Shown here piece by piece: positions 23,921 to 34,545 of a stretch of DNA of 64,000 nucleotides. Origin of the DNA: Chloroflexota bacterium (GTDB lineage: Bacteria; Chloroflexota; Limnocylindria; P2-11E); assembly GCA_027310565.1 (NCBI GenBank), contig DAIDAP010000011.1, positions 1 to 64,000 of the forward strand, in the 5' to 3' direction. A program made the position numbers and the translations under genes. Each line of letters begins with the position of its first letter. The first letter of the stretch is position 1. A model generated the notes under the pieces. The model was given only the letters and a program-made list of their open reading frames with translations, was not told the DNA's origin and searched no databases.

Positions 23921-25479
23921 GCCTGTTGTCGCAGTACCTCGAGAGAGTCGGCGGCTCTCCGGAGCCCGCGCCGGCCGCGCTGTACGCGATGCTCGACCAC
24001 ATCGCATCGGTGTCGCCCAGCGTCGCGGCGGCCGTGGTGCACGAGTTCGACGACCAGCGCACGAACCTCAAGCTCATCGCGAGCGAGAACTACTGCTCGC
24101 TGGCCACGCAGTTCGCGCAGGGCACGCTGTTCACCGACAAGTACGCCGAGGGCTATCCCGCGCATCGCTTCTACGCCGGGTGCGAGAACGTCGACGACGT
24201 CGAGAGCGAGGCGGCGCGCCTCGCGTGCGAGATCTTCGGCGCGGAGCACGCGTACGTGCAGCCGCACTCGGGTGCGGACGCGAACCTCCTCGCGTACCTC
24301 GCCATCCTCACGACGCGCGTCGAGAACAAGATGCTCGCCCGTCTCGGCATTGAGGATCCGTCGAAGGTCTCGCGGGCAGACTGGACGCGCGTCCGCGAGG
24401 CGACGCACGGGCAACGCCTCCTCGGGCTCGACTACTACTCGGGTGGCCACCTCACGCACGGGTATCGCCACAACTACTCGAGCCAGCTCTTCGACGCGTA
24501 CACGTACACCGTCGACCCCAAGACGATGCTGCTCGACCTCGACGAGGTCCGTCGTCAGGCGCGAGAGGTCAAGCCGCTCGTCCTGCTCGCCGGCTACAGC
24601 GCGTATTCGCGGAAGATCGACTTCGCGAAGCTCCGCGAGATCGCCGACGAGGTCGGCGCCGTGCTCATGGTGGACATGGCGCACTTCGCGGGGCTCGTCG
24701 CGGGCAAGGTCTTCGACGGCAGCTACGACCCGGTGCCGTTCGCGCACGTCGTCACGACGACGACGCACAAGACGCTCCGCGGTCCGCGCGGGGGTCTCGT
24801 CCTCTGCACCTCCGAGTTCACCGAGGCCGTCGACAAGGGCTGCCCGATCGTGCTCGGCGGGCCCTTGCCGCACGTCCTCGCCGCGAAGGCGGTCGCGCTG
24901 CGCGAGGCGAGCCAGCCGGGCTTCCGCGAGTACGCGCGGCGCATCGTGCAGAACTCGCAGGCGCTCGCCGAGGCGTGCCTGTCCGAGGGCATGGACGTGC
25001 TCACGGGCGGCACGGACAACCATCTCCTCCTGCTCGACGTGCACGAGAGCTTCGGGCTCACCGGGCGGCAGGCCGAGTCGGCCATCCGCGAGTGCCACAT
25101 GACGCTCAACCGCAACGCGCTGCCGTTCGACGCGAACGGCCCCTGGTACACGAGCGGGCTGCGGGTGGGCACGCCCGCGGCGACGACCCTCGGCATGACG
25201 CCGTCGGACATGCGCGAGGTCGCGAAGGTCTTCAAGCTCGTGCTCTCCAACACGAAGCCGGCGACGGTGCAGAAAGGCCCCGAGGCCGGACAGCCGAGCC
25301 GCGCGCGCTACGAGATCGATCGCGCCGCCGCGGAGTCGGCGCGCGAGCGGATCGCGGCGCTGCTCGAGCGCTATCCCGTGTATCCGGAGATCGACCTCGA
25401 CCTCCTTCGCGAAGCCGCCGCGCGGTGGGGTCCGGCCGCGACGCCGGCCGCCAAGCGCGCGGCCACGGTCGCCCACTGA
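23917..25479 (+). CDS. glyA: serine/glycine hydroxymethyltransferase (long form)
   Basis: A 520-residue PLP enzyme converting serine and tetrahydrofolate to glycine and methylene-THF. Motifs: LIASENYCS near residue 50, [18 protein letters not shown] near 75, [13 protein letters not shown] near 250, and the PLP lysine in [14 protein letters not shown] (about 285). It is about 100 residues longer than E. coli GlyA (417), with an insertion after the early SGADAN block (roughly residues 125-190), like the long GlyA forms of some other phyla. ATGA overlap with rpiB; the upp frame begins at its stop. Confidence 0.92.
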
Positions 25480-26108
25480 GCACGGCGCAGCTCCACGTCT
25501 CGGCGCACCCGCTCGTGCGGGAGAAGGTCACGCGCCTGCGTGACGAGCGCACCGAGCCGCGCACGTTCCGCGCGCTGGTCGCCGAGATCGCGACGCTCCT
25601 GCTCTACGAGGCGACCGCGGACCTCCCGATGCAGGAGACCGAGGTGCGCACGCCGCTCGCGGCGGCGAAGGGCGTCCGGCTCGCCGAGCCGCTCGGCCTC
25701 GTGCCGGTGCTGCGCGCGGGCATCGGCATGGTCGAGGCCGCGCTCGAGCTCATGCCCGACGCGCAGGTCTGGCACATCGGCCTCTTCCGCGACGAGCGCA
25801 CGCTGCGGCCGATCGAGTACTACAACAAGCTCCCCTCGGAGGCGACGGTGCAGGTCTGCCTCGTGCTCGACCCGATGCTCGCGACCGGCGGCTCGGCCGT
25901 CGCGACGATCGACATCCTGAAGAGGTGGGGCGCGCGCCGCGTGAAGTACGTCGGCATCATCGCCGCGCCCGAGGGGGTGCGCGCCCTCTCGAGCGCGCAC
26001 CCCGACGTCGCGATCCACGTCGCCGCGCTCGACGAGCGGCTCGACGAGAAGGGCTACATCGTCCCCGGTCTCGGCGACGCCGGCGACCGCCAGTTCGGGA
26101 CGGGCTGA
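25476..26108 (+). CDS. upp: uracil phosphoribosyltransferase, CTG start inferred
   Basis: A 210-residue uracil salvage enzyme making UMP from uracil and PRPP. Motifs: [16 protein letters not shown] (about residues 70-85), the PRPP loop [12 protein letters not shown] (about 130-141), and the uracil-binding C-terminal [17 protein letters not shown]. The family N-terminus (equivalent to HPLVxxKxxxLRD) is encoded from about 25497, with no ATG, GTG or TTG at the right place; the first in-frame GTG (25515) would cut into it. A CTG at 25476 overlaps the glyA stop as CTGA, matching the GTGA/ATGA coupling used elsewhere, and gives the usual family length. Confidence 0.88.
26031..26090 (+). repeat. left copy of 60-bp direct repeat (upp 3' end)
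   Basis: This part of the intact upp gene encodes its uracil-binding C-terminus. It matches 34468-34527 at 55 of 60 positions in direct orientation. The two copies bracket the restriction-modification island. Confidence 0.85.
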
Positions 26109-26143
26109 CCGGGATAACGAGCCCGCGCGCGGTGTCCTCCCCA

Positions 26144-26149
26144 TAGACT
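26144..26149 (+). promoter_or_regulatory. -10 box upstream of hsdM
   Basis: TAGACT, eight bases before the ATG at 26158. It favours that upstream start over the internal ATG at 26197. Confidence 0.45.
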
Positions 26150-26157
26150 CGTCGCCG

Positions 26158-28284
26158 ATGCGAGAAAGGGCCGACGCGAGCCAGGGCCGCGCGCCCATGA
26201 ACCACGGCGAGATCGTCAGCTTCATCTGGGGCGTCGCGGACCTCATCCGCGACAGCTTCCGGCGGGGCAAGTACCAGGACGTCATCCTCCCGCTCACCGT
26301 GCTGCGGCGCCTCGACTGCGTCCTCGCGCCGACGAAGGAGAAGGTCCTCGGCCGAGAGGCCGAGCTCAGCGCCAGGAAGCTCGAGAACCGCGACCAGCAG
26401 CTCCGGCGGGCGTCCGGCTTCGCCTTCTACAACACCTCGCGCTACGACTTCGACAAGCTCCTCGCCGACGCGCCGCACGTCGCGGCGAACCTGCGCAACT
26501 ACATCGCCGGGTTCAGCCCGAACATGCGCGAGGTGCTCGAGCGGTTCGACTTCGACAACACCATCACCAAGCTCGACGAGGCGGGCCTGCTGTTCCAGGT
26601 GCTCCAGCGCTTCCGGAGCGTGGACCTGCATCCGGACAAGATCGACAACGCGACCATGGGCACGATCTTCGAGGAGCTCATCCGCAAGTTCAACGAGGCC
26701 CTCGACGAGAACCCCGGCGAGCACTTCACGCCGCGCGACGTCGTCCACCTCATGGTCGACCTCATGCTCGCGGGCGACGAGACCCGCATCCGCACGCCGG
26801 GAGCGGTGCGCACGGTGTACGACCCCTGCTGCGGCTCGGGTGGGATGCTCACGATCACGAAGGAGCACGTGCTGCGCGGGGTCCGCAGGAACGGCGAGGT
26901 GCTGCGCCCGCCGATCAACGCGGCCGCGGAGATCCACCTCTTCGGCCAGGAGGTGAACCCCGAGACGTGGGCCGTCTCCCGCTCTGACCTCTTCATGAAG
27001 GACCCCACCGGACGCGATGCGGACAACATCGCCTTCGGCAGCACGCTCTCGAACGACCGCCACGCCGCGAGCCACTTTGACTACCTCATCGCCAACCCGC
27101 CGTACGGCAAGGACTGGAAGCGCGACGAGGACGCGGTGCGGGCGGAGCACGAGCGCGGCGCGGCCGGGCGCTTCGCGCCCGGGCTCCCGCGCATCAGCGA
27201 CGGTCAGCTCCTCTTCCTGCTGCACATGCTCGCGAAGGCGAAGGACAGGAAGGAGGGCGGCTCGCGGATCGCCATCATCATGAACGGCTCGCCGCTCTTC
27301 ACCGGCGACGCCGGCAGCGGCGAGAGCGAGATCCGCCGCTACGTGCTGGAGAACGACCTGCTCGAGGCGCTCATCGCGCTGCCCGAGCAGCTCTTCTACA
27401 ACACCGGCATCGCCACGTACGTGTGGGTCGTGACGAACCGCAAAGCGCCAAAGCGGCGCGGTAAGGTGCAGCTCATCGACGCGACGTCCTTCTGGGTGCC
27501 GATGCGCAAGAGCCTCGGGGACAAGCGGCGCGAGATCCCGCCCGAGCGGCGCGACGAGATCGTGAAGATCCTCACGGAGTTCAAGGAAGGCGAGACGAGC
27601 AAGATCTTCCCGACGACGCAGTTCGGGTTCCGGAAGATCACGGTCGAGCGCCCGCTCCGGCTCAACTTCCAGGCCACCCCTGAGCGCGTCGCCCGTCTCG
27701 ACGAGGAGCGCGGCTTCCAGGCGCTCGCGCAGTCGAAGAAGAAGGATGCGGCCGGTGCGAAGGAGCAGGCCGAGGGGCGTGCGCAGCAGGACGCCATCCG
27801 TGCGCTGCTGAACTCGCTTCCGACGACGGTCTACCAGGACCGCGACACGTTCGTGAAGGTCCTCGAGACCGCGGCGCGCAAGGCCGACATGAAGATCGCG
27901 GCGCCGGTGATGAAGGCGCTCCTATCCGCGCTGTCTGAGCGCGACGAGTCGGCGGCGGTGTGTCGCGACCTCGACGGCAGACCCGAACCCGACCCGGAGC
28001 TGCGCGACACCGAGAGCGTGCCGCTGTCCGAGAGCGTCGAAGCGTTCTTCGAGCGCGAGGTCAAGCCCCATGTCCCCGACGCCTGGATCGACCGCGAGAA
28101 GCGCGACGAGAAGGACGGCGAGGTCGGGCTCGTCGGCTACGAGATCAACTTCAACCGCTACTTCTACCGCTACCAGCCGCCGCGTCTGCTGGAGGAGATC
28201 GATGCGGACATCCGCGCGCTGGAGAAGGACATCGTCCGCATGCTGGCGGAGATGACCGGAAGCGTCATCGGCAGCGAAGAGTGA
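26158..28284 (+). CDS. hsdM: type I restriction-modification DNA methyltransferase subunit HsdM
   Basis: A 708-residue N6-adenine methyltransferase subunit of a type I R-M system. The N-terminal HsdM_N helical region (VSFIWGVADLIRDSFRRGKY) is followed by SAM-binding DPCCGSGGM (about residues 222-230) and catalytic NPPYGKDW (about 315-322). The C-terminal extension (about 500-708) is predicted helical and charged. With HsdS it methylates the bipartite host site; with HsdR it forms the nuclease. An internal ATG at 26197 is an alternative start, used by many relatives. Its stop overlaps the hsdS ATG as TGATG. Confidence 0.95.
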   Translation: MRERADASQGRAPMNHGEIVSFIWGVADLIRDSFRRGKYQDVILPLTVLRRLDCVLAPTKEKVLGREAELSARKLENRDQQLRRASGFAFYNTSRYDFDKLLADAPHVAANLRNYIAGFSPNMREVLERFDFDNTITKLDEAGLLFQVLQRFRSVDLHPDKIDNATMGTIFEELIRKFNEALDENPGEHFTPRDVVHLMVDLMLAGDETRIRTPGAVRTVYDPCCGSGGMLTITKEHVLRGVRRNGEVLRPPINAAAEIHLFGQEVNPETWAVSRSDLFMKDPTGRDADNIAFGSTLSNDRHAASHFDYLIANPPYGKDWKRDEDAVRAEHERGAAGRFAPGLPRISDGQLLFLLHMLAKAKDRKEGGSRIAIIMNGSPLFTGDAGSGESEIRRYVLENDLLEALIALPEQLFYNTGIATYVWVVTNRKAPKRRGKVQLIDATSFWVPMRKSLGDKRREIPPERRDEIVKILTEFKEGETSKIFPTTQFGFRKITVERPLRLNFQATPERVARLDEERGFQALAQSKKKDAAGAKEQAEGRAQQDAIRALLNSLPTTVYQDRDTFVKVLETAARKADMKIAAPVMKALLSALSERDESAAVCRDLDGRPEPDPELRDTESVPLSESVEAFFEREVKPHVPDAWIDREKRDEKDGEVGLVGYEINFNRYFYRYQPPRLLEEIDADIRALEKDIVRMLAEMTGSVIGSEE

Positions 28285-29669
28285 TGGCGGCTGCCGGGGT
28301 CGCTTATGGGTCACATCCGCGTTATAGGCCCTATCCGCAGTGTCAGGAGACGAGCGTCGAGCAGCTTGCGTGCATCCCAGCGCATTGGCGGGCCGAACGC
28401 CTTGGCCGCATCGGCACATTCTCGAAGGGCTACGGCGGTAACAAGGGCGATGAGGTTCCCGAAGGCATACCGTGCGTTCGCTACGGCGACCTCTACACGA
28501 CGCACCGCTACTTCATCACGTCGACGCGGCGGTGCATAAGCCCCGAGCAAGCGTCCGCGTACGCGTCCGTCCGATACGGCGAGGTGTTGTTCGCGGCCTC
28601 TGGCGAGACGTTCGAAGAAATCGGCAAGTCCGCCGTGTGCCTGATCCGGCCCGATGTCCGGTGCGGCGGCGACACGATTATCTTTCGACCCAAGGTCGAG
28701 TTCCTCGCGCGGTTCCTCGGGTATGCGACTGACTCACACTCAGCAGCGGCGCAAAAGGCTGCGATGGGTACCGGGACGACGATTAAGCACATCGCCGCTG
28801 ACCGCCTGAAGTCACTTGTGATCGCAGTGGCACCGGTTCAGGAGCAGGGCGCCATCGCGTCATTCCTCGATCGCGAGACCGCGAAGATCGACGCGCTGGT
28901 GGCGAAGAAGGAGCGGCTGATCGAGTTGCTCCTTGAGAAGCGCACTGCGCTCATCGCCAGGGCAGTGACCGAAGGCCTTGACCCGCAGGTTCCAATGAAA
29001 GACTCGGGCGTCGAGTGGCTCGGGAAGATTCCGGCCCATTGGACTACGAGACGTCTCCGGAGCACGGTGCTGGCTCGCCAGAACGGGGTTTGGGGCGAGG
29101 AGCCGGACGGGGTCGATGATCTCCCATGCATCCGTGCCGCCGACTTCGACCGTCTGATGTTCCGCGCCACGCTCGCTGGCGCTCCGTTGCGCTCGATCAA
29201 GCAACGCGACGCAGAGACTCGTGGCCTCCGAGCTGGCGATCTCTTGATTGAGGGATCTGGAGGCGGAGAGGAGCAGCCCGTTGGGATGGTTGTCCTCTAT
29301 GACGACAAGACGTCCGCCGTCTGTTCGAACTTTGTGGGTCGCATCACCGTCGCACCAGGGTTCTCTCCGAGATACCTGACGTACCTGCACGCGGCTCTCT
29401 ACGCTATCCGCTTGACGACTCGGTCGATCAAGCAGACCACGGGCCTTCAGAATCTTGACAGCGAGAGCTACCTAAACGAGGTCGTCGCACTCGCACCAGA
29501 ACCGGAACAGATTGCCATCGCCGCACATCTCGATCGAGAGACCTCGCGTATCGACGCTCTCGTCGGAAAGGTCCGCGACGCCATTGCTCAGCTGAGGGAA
29601 CTCCGGAGCGCCACTGTTTCCGCGGCGGTGACGGGCAAAATCGACGTGCGCAGGGAGGCAGCCACCTGA
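28284..29669 (+). CDS. hsdS: type I restriction-modification specificity subunit HsdS
   Basis: A 461-residue specificity subunit with two target-recognition half-repeats. Each half opens with an IPAHW motif (about residues 33-37 and 249-253) and closes with a coiled-coil spacer (FLDRETAKIDALVAKKERLI, about 192-211, and HLDRETSRIDALVGKVRDAI near 415-434). Recognised DNA sequence cannot be read from the protein. Base composition is visibly less GC-rich than in flanking genes, typical of HsdS exchange by horizontal transfer. The ATG overlaps the hsdM stop. Confidence 0.93.
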   Translation: MAAAGVAYGSHPRYRPYPQCQETSVEQLACIPAHWRAERLGRIGTFSKGYGGNKGDEVPEGIPCVRYGDLYTTHRYFITSTRRCISPEQASAYASVRYGEVLFAASGETFEEIGKSAVCLIRPDVRCGGDTIIFRPKVEFLARFLGYATDSHSAAAQKAAMGTGTTIKHIAADRLKSLVIAVAPVQEQGAIASFLDRETAKIDALVAKKERLIELLLEKRTALIARAVTEGLDPQVPMKDSGVEWLGKIPAHWTTRRLRSTVLARQNGVWGEEPDGVDDLPCIRAADFDRLMFRATLAGAPLRSIKQRDAETRGLRAGDLLIEGSGGGEEQPVGMVVLYDDKTSAVCSNFVGRITVAPGFSPRYLTYLHAALYAIRLTTRSIKQTTGLQNLDSESYLNEVVALAPEPEQIAIAAHLDRETSRIDALVGKVRDAIAQLRELRSATVSAAVTGKIDVRREAAT

Positions 29670-29733
29670 GGCGACGAGGAGCGCGTCCTGTGCTCTTTTC
29701 AAGACAAGGCTATTCCGCTAATAATGATGGCCC
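29670..29733. other. AT-richer spacer between hsdS and fic
   Basis: A 64-bp gap with unusually low GC for this window (TATTCCGCTAATAATGATGG). It could hold a promoter for fic-hsdR; TATTCC and TAATAA/TAATGA are -10-like, but no clear pair with a -35 is visible. Confidence 0.3.
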
Positions 29734-30939
29734 TTGATCTCACCGCCGAAAATAAGAGAAGCCAAGGCTCCGAGTAGGCGCCAGCCGCACGGCCGCCGCA
29801 TCCGGGCCGCGGGCGGGTACAGGCCGTATGTTCCCGCGCCCCTCCCGCCGCGCATCGAATGGACCGCCGCACTCGCCGCGCGCCTGTCCGACGCGGACCG
29901 CGCGGTCGGACGGCTCGCCGGGGAGGGCCGCCGCCTCGCGAATCCGCACCTGTTGCTGCGCCCCTTCGTCCGCCGCGAGGCAGTGCTCTCGAGCCGCATA
30001 GAAGGCACGCAGGCGACGCTCGGCGAGCTCCTCGCGGCCGAGGCGGGCGCGGCGGTCGAGCGCAGCCCCGACGACCTGCGCGAGGTCGGCAACTACGTCG
30101 TCGCGCTCGAGCAGGGCGTGAAGCGCCTGCCGAAGCTGCCGCTGTCGCTGCGGCTCGTCCGCGAGCTGCACGGCACGCTCATGCGCGGCGTGCGCGGCGA
30201 TGCCGCGACACCGGGCGAGTTCCGTACGTCGCAGAACTGGATCGGCCGCCCGGGCTCGACCCTCGCGAACGCGAGCTACGTCCCGCCGCCGCCCGATCGG
30301 CTCATGGAGTGCCTCGGGCCGTGGGAGAGGTTCCTCCACGACCGCGCCCTCCCGCCGCTCGTGCACGCGGCCGTCGTGCACGCGCAGTTCGAGGCGATCC
30401 ATCCATTCCTCGACGGAAACGGGCGCGTCGGGCGTCTCCTCATCACGCTCCTGCTGGTGGAGCGGGCCGTCTTGCCCTCGCCGCTGCTGTACCTCAGCGC
30501 GTTCTTCGAGGCGACGCGGCGCGAGTACTACGCGCGGCTCCTGGCGATCACCGAGGAAGGCGCGTGGGAGGAGTGGCTCGACTACTTCCTGCGCGGCGTC
30601 GCGGAGCAGTCCGAGGACGCGCTCACGCGCATTCAGCGCATCGACGAGTTGCTCGTCCGCTGGCGCGAGCGGCTCGTGGGCACGACCTCACGCCTCCCCG
30701 AGCGCGCGCTCGACCTCTTCGTCGCGAATCCCTTCTGGTCGGTGGGCAAGCTCGCCGAGCGCACCGGTGTCGCCTTCACGACAGCGCAGCGCGCGATCGA
30801 CCGGCTCGAGGGGGAGGGCATCGTCGCGCTCGCGACGGAGGCCAAGCGCAACCGCGTCTACTGCGCGCGCGCGATCCTCCGGGTCCTCGAGGAGCCGTCG
30901 CGCGTCGGCACGGCGCGCGGCCGGAGGACGACCGCATGA
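29734..30939 (+). CDS. Fic family protein (AMPylase) with self-inhibitory helix
   Basis: A 401-residue Fic protein. The catalytic motif HPFLDGNGRVGR is complete (about residues 223-234), so NMP transfer from ATP to a target hydroxyl is expected. An inhibitory motif, SSRIEG (about residues 89-94), lies N-terminal to the Fic core, as in class II Fic proteins, where the Glu blocks ATP binding. The Fic_N region starts at YVPAPLPP. A C-terminal winged-helix-like segment (about 330-385, SVGKLAERTGVAFTTAQRAIDRLEGEG) may bind DNA. Start is TTG 29734. Its stop overlaps the hsdR ATG as ATGA, so it is translated together with the restriction subunit. Confidence 0.9.
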   Translation: MISPPKIREAKAPSRRQPHGRRIRAAGGYRPYVPAPLPPRIEWTAALAARLSDADRAVGRLAGEGRRLANPHLLLRPFVRREAVLSSRIEGTQATLGELLAAEAGAAVERSPDDLREVGNYVVALEQGVKRLPKLPLSLRLVRELHGTLMRGVRGDAATPGEFRTSQNWIGRPGSTLANASYVPPPPDRLMECLGPWERFLHDRALPPLVHAAVVHAQFEAIHPFLDGNGRVGRLLITLLLVERAVLPSPLLYLSAFFEATRREYYARLLAITEEGAWEEWLDYFLRGVAEQSEDALTRIQRIDELLVRWRERLVGTTSRLPERALDLFVANPFWSVGKLAERTGVAFTTAQRAIDRLEGEGIVALATEAKRNRVYCARAILRVLEEPSRVGTARGRRTTA

Positions 30940-33900
30940 CCGTACGGATCGCCGAGCGCGCCTTCGAGGACGCCATCGAATGCGGCCTTCTGCGCTTCGG
31001 TCCCGACGCCTGTGCCGCAGAGGCGCCCGCCATCGGCGAGGCGACCGGGCCGTACGGCGAAACGCCGCCGGGCGGCTACCACCGGCGGCGGCCCGAGGAG
31101 TACGACCGCGCGCTCTGCCTCCTGCCGCGCGACGTCGTGGACTTCGTCCTCGCGACGCAGCCGCGGGAGTGGCAACGGCTCTCCGAGCACCACGGCGCGG
31201 CGGTGCGCGAGCAGCTCCTGCGGCGGCTCGCCGCCGAGATCGAGCGCCGCGGCGCCCTCGACGTGCTGCGGAACGGGGTCAAAGACTCCGGCGTCAAGGT
31301 CCGCCTCGCGTTCTTCCGGCCGGCCAGCGGCCTGAACGAGGAGACCCGTCGCCTGCACGCGGCGAACCTGTTCTCGGTGGTGCGTCAGGTCCGCTACAGC
31401 GCGAAGAACGACAACTCCATCGACCTCGTCCTCTTCCTGAACGGCATTCCCATCTTCACCGCCGAGCTGAAGAACCCGCTCAACGGGCAGGACGTCGAGG
31501 ACGCGATCCACCAGTACAAGACCGACCGCGACCCGCGCGAGCCGCTCCTCGCGTACGGCCGCTGCCTCGCGCACTTCGCCGTCGATCCCGACCTGGTGTA
31601 CGTCACGACGAAGCTCGCAGGCCCGAAGACGCGCTTCCTGCCGTTCAACAGGGGGAAGTTCGGCGGTGCCGGCAATCCGCCGGTCCCGCCGACCGCGAGC
31701 GGCTACGCCACCGGCTATCTCTGGGACGAGATCTGGGCGCGCGACAGCGTGCTCGACCTCGTGCGTCAGTTCATCCACGAGATCGAGGAGGAGGACGAGA
31801 ACGGGCGCAAGACCGGGCAGCGATCGCTCATCTTCCCGCGGTACCACCAGCTCGAGGCCGTGCGCGGCCTCGTGGCGGATGCGCGCGCCGCGGGCGCGGG
31901 GCAGCGCTACCTCATTCAGCACTCCGCGGGGAGCGGAAAGAGCTTCACCATCGCCTGGCTCGCGCACCGGCTCGCGACGCTGCACGACGCCGGCGACCGG
32001 CGGGTGTTCGACTCGATCGTGGTGATCACCGACCGCCGCGTCCTCGATCGCCAGCTCCAGAGCACGATGCGCCAGTTCGAGCAGACGCTCGGGGTGGTGG
32101 AGAACATCGACACCACGTCACGCCAGCTCAAGGAGGCGCTGGAGGCGGGGAAGACGATCATCGTCACCACCCTCCAGAAGTTCCCGGTGATCGCGCGTGA
32201 GATCGGGGAGCTTCCGGGGAAGCGCTTCGCGGTGATCGTCGACGAGGCGCACTCCTCGCAGTCCGGCGAGAGCACGAAGAGCCTGAAGGCCGTCTTCGCG
32301 GCGCGATCGCTCGCGGAGGCCGAGGCGCAGGAGGCCGGCGCGCAGTCGCCGGAGGAGGAGCTCGAGGACGCCGTCCTCGCGGAGATGGAGAAGCGCGGCT
32401 GGCTGCCGAACCTGTCGACGTTCGCCTTCACCGCGACGCCGAAGTCGAAGACGCTGGAGCTCTTCGGCACGAAGCGGGCGGATGGGAGCTTCGGCCCGTT
32501 CCAATTGTACTCGATGCGCCAGGCGATCGAGGAGGGCTTCATCCTCGACGTGCTCGCGACCTACACGACGTACGCGACCTACTGGCGGCTCCTCAAGAAG
32601 ATCGAGGACGATCCCCGCTACGACAAGAGGAAGGCCGAGCGGCTGCTCCGGTCGTTCGTTGATCTGCACCCGCACGCGATCAACGAGAAGGTGCGGATCA
32701 TGGTCGAGCACTTCGCCGCGCAGGTGCAGGGCGAGATCGGCGGCAGGGCGAAGGCGATGGTGGTCACGCGCTCCCGGCTCCACGCGGTGCGCTTCAAGCT
32801 CGCGATGGATGCGTATCTGAAAGAGCACGGGTACCCCTTCGGCACGCTCGTGGCGTTCTCCGGCACGGTTCGCGACGGCGGCCGTTCCTACACCGAGAGC
32901 GGGATGAACTCGCTCGGGCGGAGCGGGACGATCGGCGAGAGCCAGACGGCGCGCGAGTTCGCCAAGCCCGAGTACCGCCTTCTCATCGTGGCGAACAAGT
33001 TCCAGACCGGCTTCGACCAGCCGCTCCTCCACACCATGTACGTCGACAAGAAGCTCGGCGGCGTGAACGCCGTGCAGACGCTGTCACGCCTCGATCGCAT
33101 CCATCCCGAGAAGAAGGGCACGGCGGTGCTGGACTTCGCGAACGGCGCGGACGAGATCGGGGCGGCGTTCGAGCCGTACTACGACACGACGATCCTCTCG
33201 GAAGGGACTGACCCGAATCTCCTCTACGAGGTGCAGGGCCGGCTGGCCGCCTTCCCGGTGTACGCGGAGGCCGACCTCACCGCGTTCGCGAGCATCTATT
33301 TCGACCCCAAGGCGACGCAGGACCGCGTCTACGTGGCGCTCGCGCCGGCGGTCGAGCGGTTCCGTGCGCTCACTCCGGACGAGCAGGCCGATTTCCGCGG
33401 CGAGCTCGCCGACTACGTCCGCCTGTACGCCTTCCTCTCGCAGATCCTGACCTTCGCCGACGCCGACCTCGAGAAGCTCTACGCCTTCGCGCGGCACCTG
33501 CGGCGGGTCCTCCCGTCGGACCGCGCCGACCTGCCGCGGGAGGTGCAGCAGAACATCGACATGGAGTCCTATCGGATCCAGCAGACCGGTGCCGGCGCGA
33601 TCACCCTCACGCGTCGCGCGGGCGCATTGACACCCGCGGGCACGAAGGCCGCGCGCGGGGCGGAGGCCGAGGAGCTGGAGGCGCTGTCCCGGATCATCGC
33701 CGAGCTCAACGAGCGCTTCGGCCTCGATCTCGGACCGGAGCACCGGGTGACCCTCGGCCAGATGCTCGAGCGCCTCGACGCCGACGCGGGGCTCGATGCA
33801 AGCGCGCGCGCGAACACGCGCGAGAACGTGCGCCTGACCTTCGACGAGAAGGTCGAGCAGGTGATCCAGGACATCGTCGACTCGAACTTCGAGCTGTACA

Positions 33901-34484
33901 AGCGCATCACCGACGATCGCGCGTTCGGCGACGCCCTCAAGAACTTCCTCTTCGATCAGTACCTCCGCGCGCACCGGCAGGCCGAGGAGCTCATCAAGCG
34001 AGGCGAGTCCAAGACGCTCGAGTTCAAGTCGACTTTGCGATGGGACCTGAAGGCGGATCGCCAGGACGACCGGGGCGTCACGCATGCCGTCCTGAAGACC
34101 GTCGCCGCGTTCCTCAACACCGAGGGCGGCGACCTGCTCCTCGGCGTGGCCGACGATGGAGCGGTGGCCGGCATCGAGCGGGACGGGCTGGAGAGCGACG
34201 ACAAGTTCATGCGCCACCTCGCGCAGGTCGTGCGCAACGGCCTCGGGGATCGGGCGAGTACGTGCATCGATCCGCGGATCCAGATCGTCGAGGGGAAGAC
34301 GGTCTGCGTCGTGAGCTGCCGGCGCAGCCCCGAGCCGGTGTTCCTCAAGTGGAAGGGCTTGGAGGCGAGCCCTGAGGGCGACTTCTATGTCCGGAGCGGC
34401 CCCAGCTCTGTGAAGCTACCACCCGAGAGCGCAATGGAGTTCATCCAGACTCGCTTCGAGAGGTCTGGACGAGCGGCTCGGTGA
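30936..34484 (+). CDS. hsdR: type I restriction subunit HsdR with C-terminal AlbA/Schlafen-type domain
   Basis: A 1182-residue restriction and translocation subunit. The nuclease core (D and ELK in DLVLFLNGIPIFTAELKN) is near residues 162-179. SF2 motor motifs are Walker A HSAGSGKSFT (about 328-337), DEAHSS (about 435-440) and TATPKSKT. The helical C-terminal part reaches about 1010. An extra domain at about 1018-1175 begins GESKTLEFKSTLRWD and includes VAAFLNTEGGDLLLGVADDG, the pattern of the AlbA_2 / Schlafen-like putative ATP/nucleic-acid-binding domain. The last residues (GRAAR) are read out of frame from a upp remnant, so the original 3' end is probably lost. Confidence 0.93.
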   Translation: MTVRIAERAFEDAIECGLLRFGPDACAAEAPAIGEATGPYGETPPGGYHRRRPEEYDRALCLLPRDVVDFVLATQPREWQRLSEHHGAAVREQLLRRLAAEIERRGALDVLRNGVKDSGVKVRLAFFRPASGLNEETRRLHAANLFSVVRQVRYSAKNDNSIDLVLFLNGIPIFTAELKNPLNGQDVEDAIHQYKTDRDPREPLLAYGRCLAHFAVDPDLVYVTTKLAGPKTRFLPFNRGKFGGAGNPPVPPTASGYATGYLWDEIWARDSVLDLVRQFIHEIEEEDENGRKTGQRSLIFPRYHQLEAVRGLVADARAAGAGQRYLIQHSAGSGKSFTIAWLAHRLATLHDAGDRRVFDSIVVITDRRVLDRQLQSTMRQFEQTLGVVENIDTTSRQLKEALEAGKTIIVTTLQKFPVIAREIGELPGKRFAVIVDEAHSSQSGESTKSLKAVFAARSLAEAEAQEAGAQSPEEELEDAVLAEMEKRGWLPNLSTFAFTATPKSKTLELFGTKRADGSFGPFQLYSMRQAIEEGFILDVLATYTTYATYWRLLKKIEDDPRYDKRKAERLLRSFVDLHPHAINEKVRIMVEHFAAQVQGEIGGRAKAMVVTRSRLHAVRFKLAMDAYLKEHGYPFGTLVAFSGTVRDGGRSYTESGMNSLGRSGTIGESQTAREFAKPEYRLLIVANKFQTGFDQPLLHTMYVDKKLGGVNAVQTLSRLDRIHPEKKGTAVLDFANGADEIGAAFEPYYDTTILSEGTDPNLLYEVQGRLAAFPVYAEADLTAFASIYFDPKATQDRVYVALAPAVERFRALTPDEQADFRGELADYVRLYAFLSQILTFADADLEKLYAFARHLRRVLPSDRADLPREVQQNIDMESYRIQQTGAGAITLTRRAGALTPAGTKAARGAEAEELEALSRIIAELNERFGLDLGPEHRVTLGQMLERLDADAGLDASARANTRENVRLTFDEKVEQVIQDIVDSNFELYKRITDDRAFGDALKNFLFDQYLRAHRQAEELIKRGESKTLEFKSTLRWDLKADRQDDRGVTHAVLKTVAAFLNTEGGDLLLGVADDGAVAGIERDGLESDDKFMRHLAQVVRNGLGDRASTCIDPRIQIVEGKTVCVVSCRRSPEPVFLKWKGLEASPEGDFYVRSGPSSVKLPPESAMEFIQTRFERSGRAAR

Positions 34485-34527
34485 GCAGGGCTACATCGTC
34501 CTCGGTCTCGGCGACGCCGGCGACCGG
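34468..34527 (+). repeat. right copy of 60-bp direct repeat, decayed upp 3' end
   Basis: Matches 26031-26090 at 55 of 60 bases. Read in the upp frame it still gives [20 protein letters not shown], the uracil-binding C-terminus of Upp with substitutions, then loses the normal ending. Similarity stops sharply on the left at 34468, inside the hsdR frame. The hsdR stop codon (34482-34484) lies in this remnant. Confidence 0.85.
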
Positions 34528-34545
34528 CGGTCCCGGGACGAGGTA
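34469..34545 (+). pseudogene. upp 3'-end fragment
   Basis: About 20 codons of a uracil phosphoribosyltransferase C-terminus, without the rest of the gene, between hsdR and the wecA-like gene. It is best read as the displaced tail of the original upp or as sequence carried in with the island. Confidence 0.7.

What the first reader, a model, noticed from the sequence alone, without database searches (positions are those of the whole stretch)
26109..34484. Composite defence island: type I R-M with an embedded Fic gene and an AlbA-extended HsdR
hsdM and hsdS overlap (TGATG). After a 64-bp AT-richer gap, a catalytically complete Fic protein overlaps hsdR (ATGA), and HsdR carries an extra C-terminal AlbA_2/Schlafen-like domain. 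Type I systems are known to carry accessory genes, but a co-translated Fic AMPylase plus an HsdR-AlbA fusion suggests a restriction system with a built-in abortive or regulatory arm: Fic could act when restriction fails, or control HsdR.
Basis: partly seen in the sequence, partly recalled or inferred. Interest (0 to 1): 0.75.

Follow-up and report, generated by a model that had tools for sequence, protein, structure and literature searches.

The report
Restriction system with swappable toxin slot
This is a complete bacterial anti-virus restriction system that carries two extra parts, an exchangeable Fic toxin-like gene and a fixed Schlafen-type domain that looks like an RNA cutter, and the same Schlafen part turns up on the tails of several unrelated restriction enzymes, suggesting a common backup weapon.

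Summary
hsdM, hsdS, fic and hsdR are intact, with the stated overlaps, and HsdR has a true C-terminal SLFN_AlbA_2 domain. The fic gene is an autoinhibited (class II) SoFic-type AMPylase. The locus is a single 8.4-kb island, not a composite defence island: it sits between upp and wecA, flanked by a 72-bp copy of the upp 3' end, and same-genus genomes lack it.

The proposed Fic-AlbA functional unit is not supported. Across 57 complete relatives Fic and AlbA are independent (Fisher p=0.77). AlbA tracks HsdR, but Fic is exchanged: two loci 92% identical in HsdR have Fic proteins only 45% identical. Fic is one of many interchangeable toxin-type occupants of slots in this operon (AbiE, PIN, TIR, SIR2, GmrSD, IrrE/DUF4411).

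The stronger finding is AlbA. It aligns with Schlafen and SAMD9 RNases and keeps their acidic triad. Its closest relatives, 12 of 12 strong hits in 151 Chloroflexota genomes, are C-terminal domains of restriction proteins: HsdR, type III Res, GmrSD and DruE-like helicases.

Best reading: a type I R-M system with two independent backup arms, resembling EcoprrI-PrrC, one swappable (Fic) and one built into HsdR (Schlafen-like). Activity is untested.

The parts
26028..26099 (.). left copy of 72-bp direct repeat = 3' end of upp (upp itself 25476-26108)
   Evidence: the repeat finder D2; UPRTase Pfam 6e-72; upp in all relatives of the family
26158..28284 (+). hsdM, type I N6-adenine methyltransferase subunit (start more likely ATG 26197)
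   Evidence: Pfam N6_Mtase, HsdM_N; PADLOC MTase_I E 4e-277, match from residue 14
28284..29669 (+). hsdS, type I specificity subunit, overlaps hsdM stop (TGATG)
   Evidence: Methylase_S; PADLOC Specificity_I E 1e-90 over the full length
29696..29725 (+). promoter-like site TTTTCA-18-AATAAT in the AT-richer gap before fic; a similar TTTTC-N17/18-TAATA lies before fic in L016, L031, L022
   Evidence: consensus match only
29734..30939 (+). fic (SoFic-type class II AMPylase), TTG start, C-terminal winged-helix-like region
   Evidence: Fic_N, Fic; PADLOC SoFic E 9e-118; PDB Fic/SoFic structures E 2e-36 to 6e-33
29989..30006 (+). inhibitory motif SSRIEG (Glu codon 30001-30003)
   Evidence: sequence; SSxIEG present in most other Fic proteins of the family
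30400..30435 (+). Fic active site HPFLDGNGRVGR
   Evidence: sequence; HPFxDGNGR present in 18 of 19 other Fic proteins
30936..34484 (+). hsdR, type I restriction/translocation subunit with C-terminal Schlafen/AlbA_2 extension, overlaps fic stop (ATGA)
   Evidence: HSDR_N, SWI2_SNF2, ResIII, T1R_D3-like, SLFN_AlbA_2; TIGR00348 E 2e-62 though under its cut-off; D163, E177, K179 and Walker A invariant in 22 homologues
34005..34418 (+). Schlafen/AlbA_2 domain of HsdR with ExxxxE...GVxD triad (E1024, E1029, D1073/1074)
   Evidence: Pfam; profile match to SLFN11/13/12; model pLDDT 88, Foldseek to DIP2311, SLFN13, SAMD9 tRNase domain; conservation 34, 36, 34 of 36
34465..34536 (.). right copy of the 72-bp repeat, a displaced upp 3' end; holds the hsdR stop codon
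   Evidence: aligned to upp ends of relatives

Best explanation
An 8.4-kb island inserted behind upp encodes a complete type I restriction-modification system with two separate add-ons. (1) A swappable toxin cassette: here an autoinhibited SoFic-type AMPylase with its own promoter-like site, placed between hsdS and hsdR and translationally coupled to hsdR. In related loci this slot, or the one between hsdM and hsdS, holds AbiE, PIN, IrrE/DUF4411, TIR, SIR2 or GmrSD genes instead. (2) A built-in C-terminal Schlafen/AlbA_2 domain on HsdR that keeps the acidic triad of Schlafen and SAMD9 ribonucleases. Most likely mechanism: HsdM2S methylates self DNA and HsdR translocates and cuts unmodified DNA. 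If restriction is blocked or outrun, the Schlafen domain (cleaving tRNA) and/or Fic (AMPylating a host target) stops translation or growth of the infected cell, like PrrC with EcoprrI. Shown: anatomy, independence of Fic and AlbA, exchange of Fic, conservation of both active sites, fusion of the same Schlafen module to other restriction effectors. Inferred: that the Schlafen domain cuts RNA, that either arm is triggered by restriction failure, and that the Fic protein is kept in check by the R-M complex or by its own inhibitory helix.
For: Domains and motifs. Independence and exchange: tree and tests; L016 and L017 are 93/92/91% identical in HsdM/HsdR/AlbA but 45% in Fic. Slot occupants. AlbA as Schlafen-type domain: profile hits SLFN11 5e-9, SLFN13 (PDB 5yd0) 7e-8, SLFN12 2e-7; Foldseek DIP2311 8e-7, SLFN13 3e-5, SAMD9 tRNase domain 7e-5; triad 34, 36, 34 of 36, matching E205/E210/D248 of SLFN13 (PMC5862951) and E184/E196/D241 of SAMD9 (PMC11221667). 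Same module on other restriction effectors: 12 of 12 hits below 1e-30. Precedents: PrrC embedded in EcoprrI (PMC3874165; PMC2610378); immunity-suicide coupling (PMC3506569); Schlafen RNases as backup effectors in BREX (PMC12839542); SoFic as an anti-phage abortive system (PMC12249575).
Against: No activity data for any part. Two haloarchaeal HsdR-AlbA proteins (L066, L085) replace the first Glu by Arg, so catalysis need not be universal; SLFN5 binds nucleic acid without cutting. Fic remnants in L024, L042, L052 show the cassette is dispensable. No physical R-M/Fic contact could be tested. The full HsdR model is poor (pLDDT 66, pTM 0.42), so the placement of the Schlafen domain is unknown.
Confidence: 0.5

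Rival explanations
1. The AlbA_2 domain is only a nucleic-acid-binding part of HsdR that helps DNA engagement or translocation; it cuts no RNA. Fic is an unrelated passenger.
For: AlbA_2 is annotated as DNA-binding in pAgo proteins (PMC6299218); SLFN5 binds without cutting; haloarchaeal copies lack the first Glu; HsdR without AlbA is common in the same family.
Against: E1029 is invariant in 36 of 36 and the whole acidic triad is kept in nearly all copies and in the GmrSD, Res and DruE fusions inspected, which pure binding does not require.
Confidence: 0.3
2. Fic is a regulator of the R-M system: its C-terminal winged helix represses the promoter before fic, so the fic-hsdR unit is delayed relative to hsdMS, like a controller protein; AMPylation may tune HsdR or the host.
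For: Promoter-like site between hsdS and fic, similar in three relatives; NTGA overlap of fic and hsdR kept in several loci; weak HTH matches at residues 321-376.
Against: Most homologous loci have no Fic, and hsdR often follows hsdS directly; Fic lineages change freely under the same hsdR; no significant operator palindrome in the window. Type I systems are usually controlled after translation (own knowledge).
Confidence: 0.15
3. One reading: Fic and the AlbA extension form one co-evolved functional unit.
For: Both occur together here and in 9 of 17 Fic-bearing complete loci.
Against: Fisher p=0.77 for presence anywhere; no association in independent pairs; 16 changes of Fic against 6 of AlbA on the tree; no identity correlation. 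Fic strictly between hsdS and hsdR is commoner with AlbA (9/30 against 2/36, p=0.017), but this ignores relatedness and disappears in independent pairs.
Confidence: 0.05

Closest known systems
EcoprrI with embedded PrrC anticodon nuclease (type IC R-M; E. coli prr)
   Same: A toxin-type gene embedded in a type I hsd operon; proposed logic of a backup that acts when restriction is defeated.
   Different: PrrC is an ABC-ATPase/HEPN tRNA nuclease; here the embedded gene is a Fic AMPylase, and a possible RNase is fused to HsdR itself. No homology to PrrC was found (Pfam). The association here is looser: the cassette is exchanged.
SoFic (class II Fic) anti-phage systems
   Same: PADLOC SoFic E 9e-118 over residues 28-386, same active site, N-terminal inhibitory motif and C-terminal winged-helix region.
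   Different: Below the NCBIfam SoFic equivalog cut-off (161 against 550 bits), so family-level only; embedded in an R-M operon instead of standing alone; no neighbouring small anti-Sofic gene, since hsdR follows at once.
Campylobacter jejuni type I loci with rlo inserts
   Same: hsd loci with inserted accessory genes (cited in PMC2610378).
   Different: Different inserts; the original 2005 paper was not read, so details not checked.
Schlafen-family RNases as backup effectors in BREX
   Same: Schlafen domain associated with a DNA-restriction-type system as a proposed suicidal backup (PMC12839542).
   Different: There fused to a histidine-kinase-like/wHTH part as a separate protein; here fused to the C-terminus of the restriction subunit itself.
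HsdR of ordinary type I systems (EcoR124I family)
   Same: Nuclease, helicase and C-terminal helical parts; PDB 2w00 E 1e-15.
   Different: Extra 160-residue Schlafen/AlbA_2 domain, absent from HsdR of same-class relatives at 51% identity.

Membership tests
Type I restriction-modification | HsdM with N6-adenine MTase domain, HsdS with specificity domains, HsdR with HSDR_N nuclease and SF2 helicase | tested here: met
   D163/E177/K179 and Walker A invariant
Type I restriction-modification | ATP-dependent cutting of unmodified DNA | not testable with these tools
   needs biochemistry
SoFic / class II Fic AMPylase | HPFx[DE]GN[GK]R motif and N-terminal (S/T)xxxE(G/N) inhibitory helix | tested here: met
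   sequence; conserved in relatives
SoFic / class II Fic AMPylase | score above NCBIfam equivalog cut-off NF046030 | tested here: not met
   161 bits against 550: class II Fic of the wider SoFic-like family, not an orthologue of the type protein
SLFN_AlbA_2 (Schlafen) domain | sequence and fold of the family | tested here: met
   Pfam 5.5e-18 over cut-off; Foldseek to DIP2311, SLFN13, SAMD9
Schlafen-type ribonuclease | E...E...D acidic triad | tested here: met
   E1024 34/36, E1029 36/36, D1073 34/36; aligned to the SLFN11 ESQSIEFK...GVDD stretch; 3D clustering not measured
Schlafen-type ribonuclease | RNA cleavage | not testable with these tools
   needs assay
PrrC-type R-M guard | effector gene embedded in a type I hsd operon | tested here: met
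   fic between hsdS and hsdR
PrrC-type R-M guard | homology of the effector to PrrC/RloC | tested here: not met
   no such Pfam match in Fic or HsdR: works-like claim only
PrrC-type R-M guard | held latent by the R-M complex and released by anti-restriction factors | not tested
   experiment needed
Integrase-bearing genomic island | flanking direct repeat from a gene 3' end | tested here: met
   72 bp, 88%
Integrase-bearing genomic island | own integrase | tested here: not met
   no recombinase ORF between the repeats; 7 integrase-domain hits, all on other contigs

The most novel reading that the evidence does not exclude
A distinct subfamily of Schlafen/AlbA_2 domains is a portable C-terminal ribonuclease module tacked onto the DNA-targeting proteins of unrelated restriction systems (type I HsdR, type III Res, GmrSD-like, DruE-like helicase). 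It makes each a two-substrate enzyme that cuts foreign DNA and, when that fails, cuts tRNA to stop the infected cell: a fused, generalised version of EcoprrI-PrrC and a prokaryotic counterpart of SAMD9.
Probability: 0.35. Interest if true: 0.8.

Novelty: new variant of a known kind. Interest (0 to 1): 0.52.

Why it matters
If the Schlafen module is active, many restriction enzymes carry a built-in second weapon aimed at RNA, which would explain how they protect against phages that block or outrun DNA cutting and would link type I, III and IV restriction to human Schlafen and SAMD9 immunity. Only one domain needs mutating to test it. The slot data also make the general immunity-suicide coupling idea testable: the same hsdR with different cassettes (L016 and L017) is a natural swap experiment.

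Tried and rejected
- Fic-AlbA as a unit: rejected by co-occurrence, tree and identity tests.
- Fic operator palindrome: no significant inverted repeat in the window; L018 and L038 have one at about p 0.02, not followed.
- upp as a general integration hotspot: other inserts between upp and wecA in relatives look like ordinary genes; only G008 shows a clear second upp-end remnant.
- Assembly chimera: the repeats are 88%, not 100%, identical, and both flanks lie on one 96-kb contig with the family's conserved gene order.
- Full HsdR fold: low confidence, so not searched against the PDB.
- Single origin of AlbA on HsdR: the tree needs 3 changes, but the AU test does not reject one clade (p 0.18).
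- Literature: no held paper contains both 'HsdR' and 'Schlafen'; the library is open access only, so absence is weak evidence.
- AlbA in phages: none in 50,697 phage records; one IMG/VR contig, again a GmrSD-like fusion next to an integrase-like ORF.
Full report
WHAT IS THERE. The window encodes, all on the plus strand, hsdM (26158 or 26197 to 28284), hsdS (28284-29669), fic (29734-30939) and hsdR (30936-34484). Pfam, PADLOC and NCBIfam agree on the identity of all four. The HsdR nuclease residues D163, E177 and K179 and the Walker A motif are invariant in 22 homologues. Fic has a full HPFLDGNGRVGR site and an N-terminal SSRIEG inhibitory motif, so it is a class II, autoinhibited AMPylase of the SoFic-like family. 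It falls below the NCBIfam equivalog cut-off for SoFic proper.

THE ISLAND. The flanks are housekeeping genes: sua5, rpiB, glyA and upp before it, and a wecA-like gene, a DUF72 gene and an S9 peptidase after it. A 72-bp stretch at the 3' end of upp (26028-26099) is repeated at 34465-34536 with 88% identity. The right copy contains the hsdR stop codon. The 27 relatives searched in the same family all carry a upp match, and in several the wecA-like gene follows within about 6-60 bp. The four same-genus genomes have no HsdR match. So the R-M genes are a lone insertion behind upp, probably by att-like site-specific recombination (inference), with no recombinase left inside. The organism belongs to the same class as a Chloroflexi MAG: locus L003, from a same-class genome, has an HsdR identical to that of Chloroflexi fen_1024, L079.

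RELATIVES. The nearest same-class HsdR proteins (51% identity) have no AlbA domain and no Fic; one has a PIN-domain gene between hsdS and hsdR. A scan of one genome per species gave 80 HsdR-family loci from many phyla. Their operon is hsdM - slot A - hsdS - slot B - hsdR. In the close clade, slot A usually holds AbiEi, mostly with AbiEii. Fic, Fic remnants, IrrE/DUF4411, AAA_14/DUF4143, an SDH-type protease or AbiEii appear in slot B, and TIR, GmrSD and AlbA_2/HATPase genes in slot A. More distant loci hold PIN (slot B) and SIR2 (slot A) genes. In the window hsdM and hsdS overlap, so slot A is empty. A stop-start overlap into hsdR is often kept whatever gene precedes it, including fic-hsdR in L031, L034, L038, L041 and L072.

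On an HsdR-core tree of 84 loci, Fic presence in the 57 complete loci is independent of AlbA (22/8 against 18/9, Fisher p=0.77). Over the 66 loci usable for tree counts, Fic needs 16 changes and AlbA 6; independent pairs show no association, with low power. Fic strictly between hsdS and hsdR is commoner with AlbA (p=0.017), but that test ignores relatedness and the signal disappears in independent pairs. Identity tells the same story: HsdR-HsdM rho 0.94, HsdR-AlbA 0.86, HsdR-Fic 0.10; L016 and L017 share 93% HsdM, 92% HsdR, 91% AlbA and only 45% Fic (pairs are not independent of each other). Fic is therefore an exchangeable cassette, and AlbA a stable part of HsdR. Fic is nonetheless enriched here: 17 of 57 loci, against 3 of 119 HsdM genes with a Fic within 10 kb across 151 Chloroflexota genomes.

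THE AlbA DOMAIN. A profile of 36 HsdR AlbA domains finds Schlafens in the PDB. The AlphaFold model is good (pLDDT 88) and matches DIP2311, a RecG-related protein, SLFN13 and the SAMD9 tRNase domain. The Schlafen triad E205/E210/D248 (PMC5862951) corresponds to E1024, E1029 and D1073 or D1074, present in 34, 36 and 34 (33 for D1074) of 36 sequences. The SAMD9 triad is described in PMC11221667.

A PORTABLE MODULE. Searching 151 Chloroflexota genomes with the same profile gives 12 hits below 1e-30. All 12 are C-terminal domains of restriction-type proteins: this HsdR, eight GmrSD_N proteins, two DruE-like helicases (one seen only as a 470-aa open frame with the same MZB domain) and one type III Res-like protein. 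The triad pattern is kept in the fusions inspected. The single plasmid hit is an annotated DUF262 (GmrSD) protein, and the single viral-contig hit is a protein of the same GmrSD-like type by inspection. The domain tree interleaves HsdR and GmrSD copies, suggesting more than one fusion, but one origin on HsdR is not rejected (p 0.18). No held paper mentions HsdR together with Schlafen, and the GmrSD phylogenomics paper does not mention AlbA.

HOW IT PROBABLY WORKS. Restriction is the first line. The Schlafen domain on HsdR and the Fic protein are two separate second lines that would shut down the cell when restriction is blocked or outrun, as PrrC does for EcoprrI (PMC3874165; PMC2610378), in line with the immunity-suicide coupling hypothesis (PMC3506569) and with Schlafen RNases as BREX backups (PMC12839542). 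Shown here: anatomy, conservation, independence and module sharing. Inferred: RNA cutting, trigger and control. The promoter-like site before fic also allows a regulatory role, which I rate lower.

VERDICT. A confirmed observation and a partly supported interpretation. The locus is a new variant of the known kind 'type I R-M with embedded toxin'. The shared C-terminal Schlafen module is the part worth following.

Noticed in passing
window 26028-26099 and 34465-34536; L134 1937-1983: upp 3' end duplicated at both island ends; genome G008 of the same family carries another upp-end remnant before its wecA-like gene with a different small gene in between.
   Followed up: partly
L022, L024, L028, L033, L037, L051, L076 (slot between hsdM and hsdS): AbiEi antitoxin-like gene kept without any detectable AbiEii toxin, as if the antitoxin outlives the toxin or has become a regulator of the R-M operon.
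   Followed up: no
L150-L160, L163, L167: Schlafen/AlbA_2 domain fused to C-termini of GmrSD_N proteins, DruE-like helicases and a type III Res-like protein.
   Followed up: partly
L164, L165 (Thermus plasmids pVV8, pTB1): A Fic protein about 50% identical to the window's overlaps the start of a DUF1156 gene, next to a helicase-related gene; a Swt1-HEPN or DUF499 gene lies further on. The same kind of Fic is tied to another restriction-like operon.
   Followed up: no
L024, L042, L052 (before hsdR): Decayed fic remnants in slot B; L042 and L052 also carry a separate AlbA_2/HATPase-type gene between hsdM and hsdS.
   Followed up: partly
L059-L061, L063, L067, L068: Loci of candidate-phylum bacteria (CPR-type) in this HsdR family carry Fic in different positions (before hsdM, between hsdM and hsdS, or between hsdS and hsdR), without AlbA.
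   Followed up: no
window 29734: fic appears to start with TTG without an evident Shine-Dalgarno, hinting at low expression of a toxin-like gene.
   Followed up: no
PDB 9ylu 'CbCash': A solved protein named CbCash matches the HsdR AlbA profile (E 3e-4); nature not looked up.
   Followed up: no
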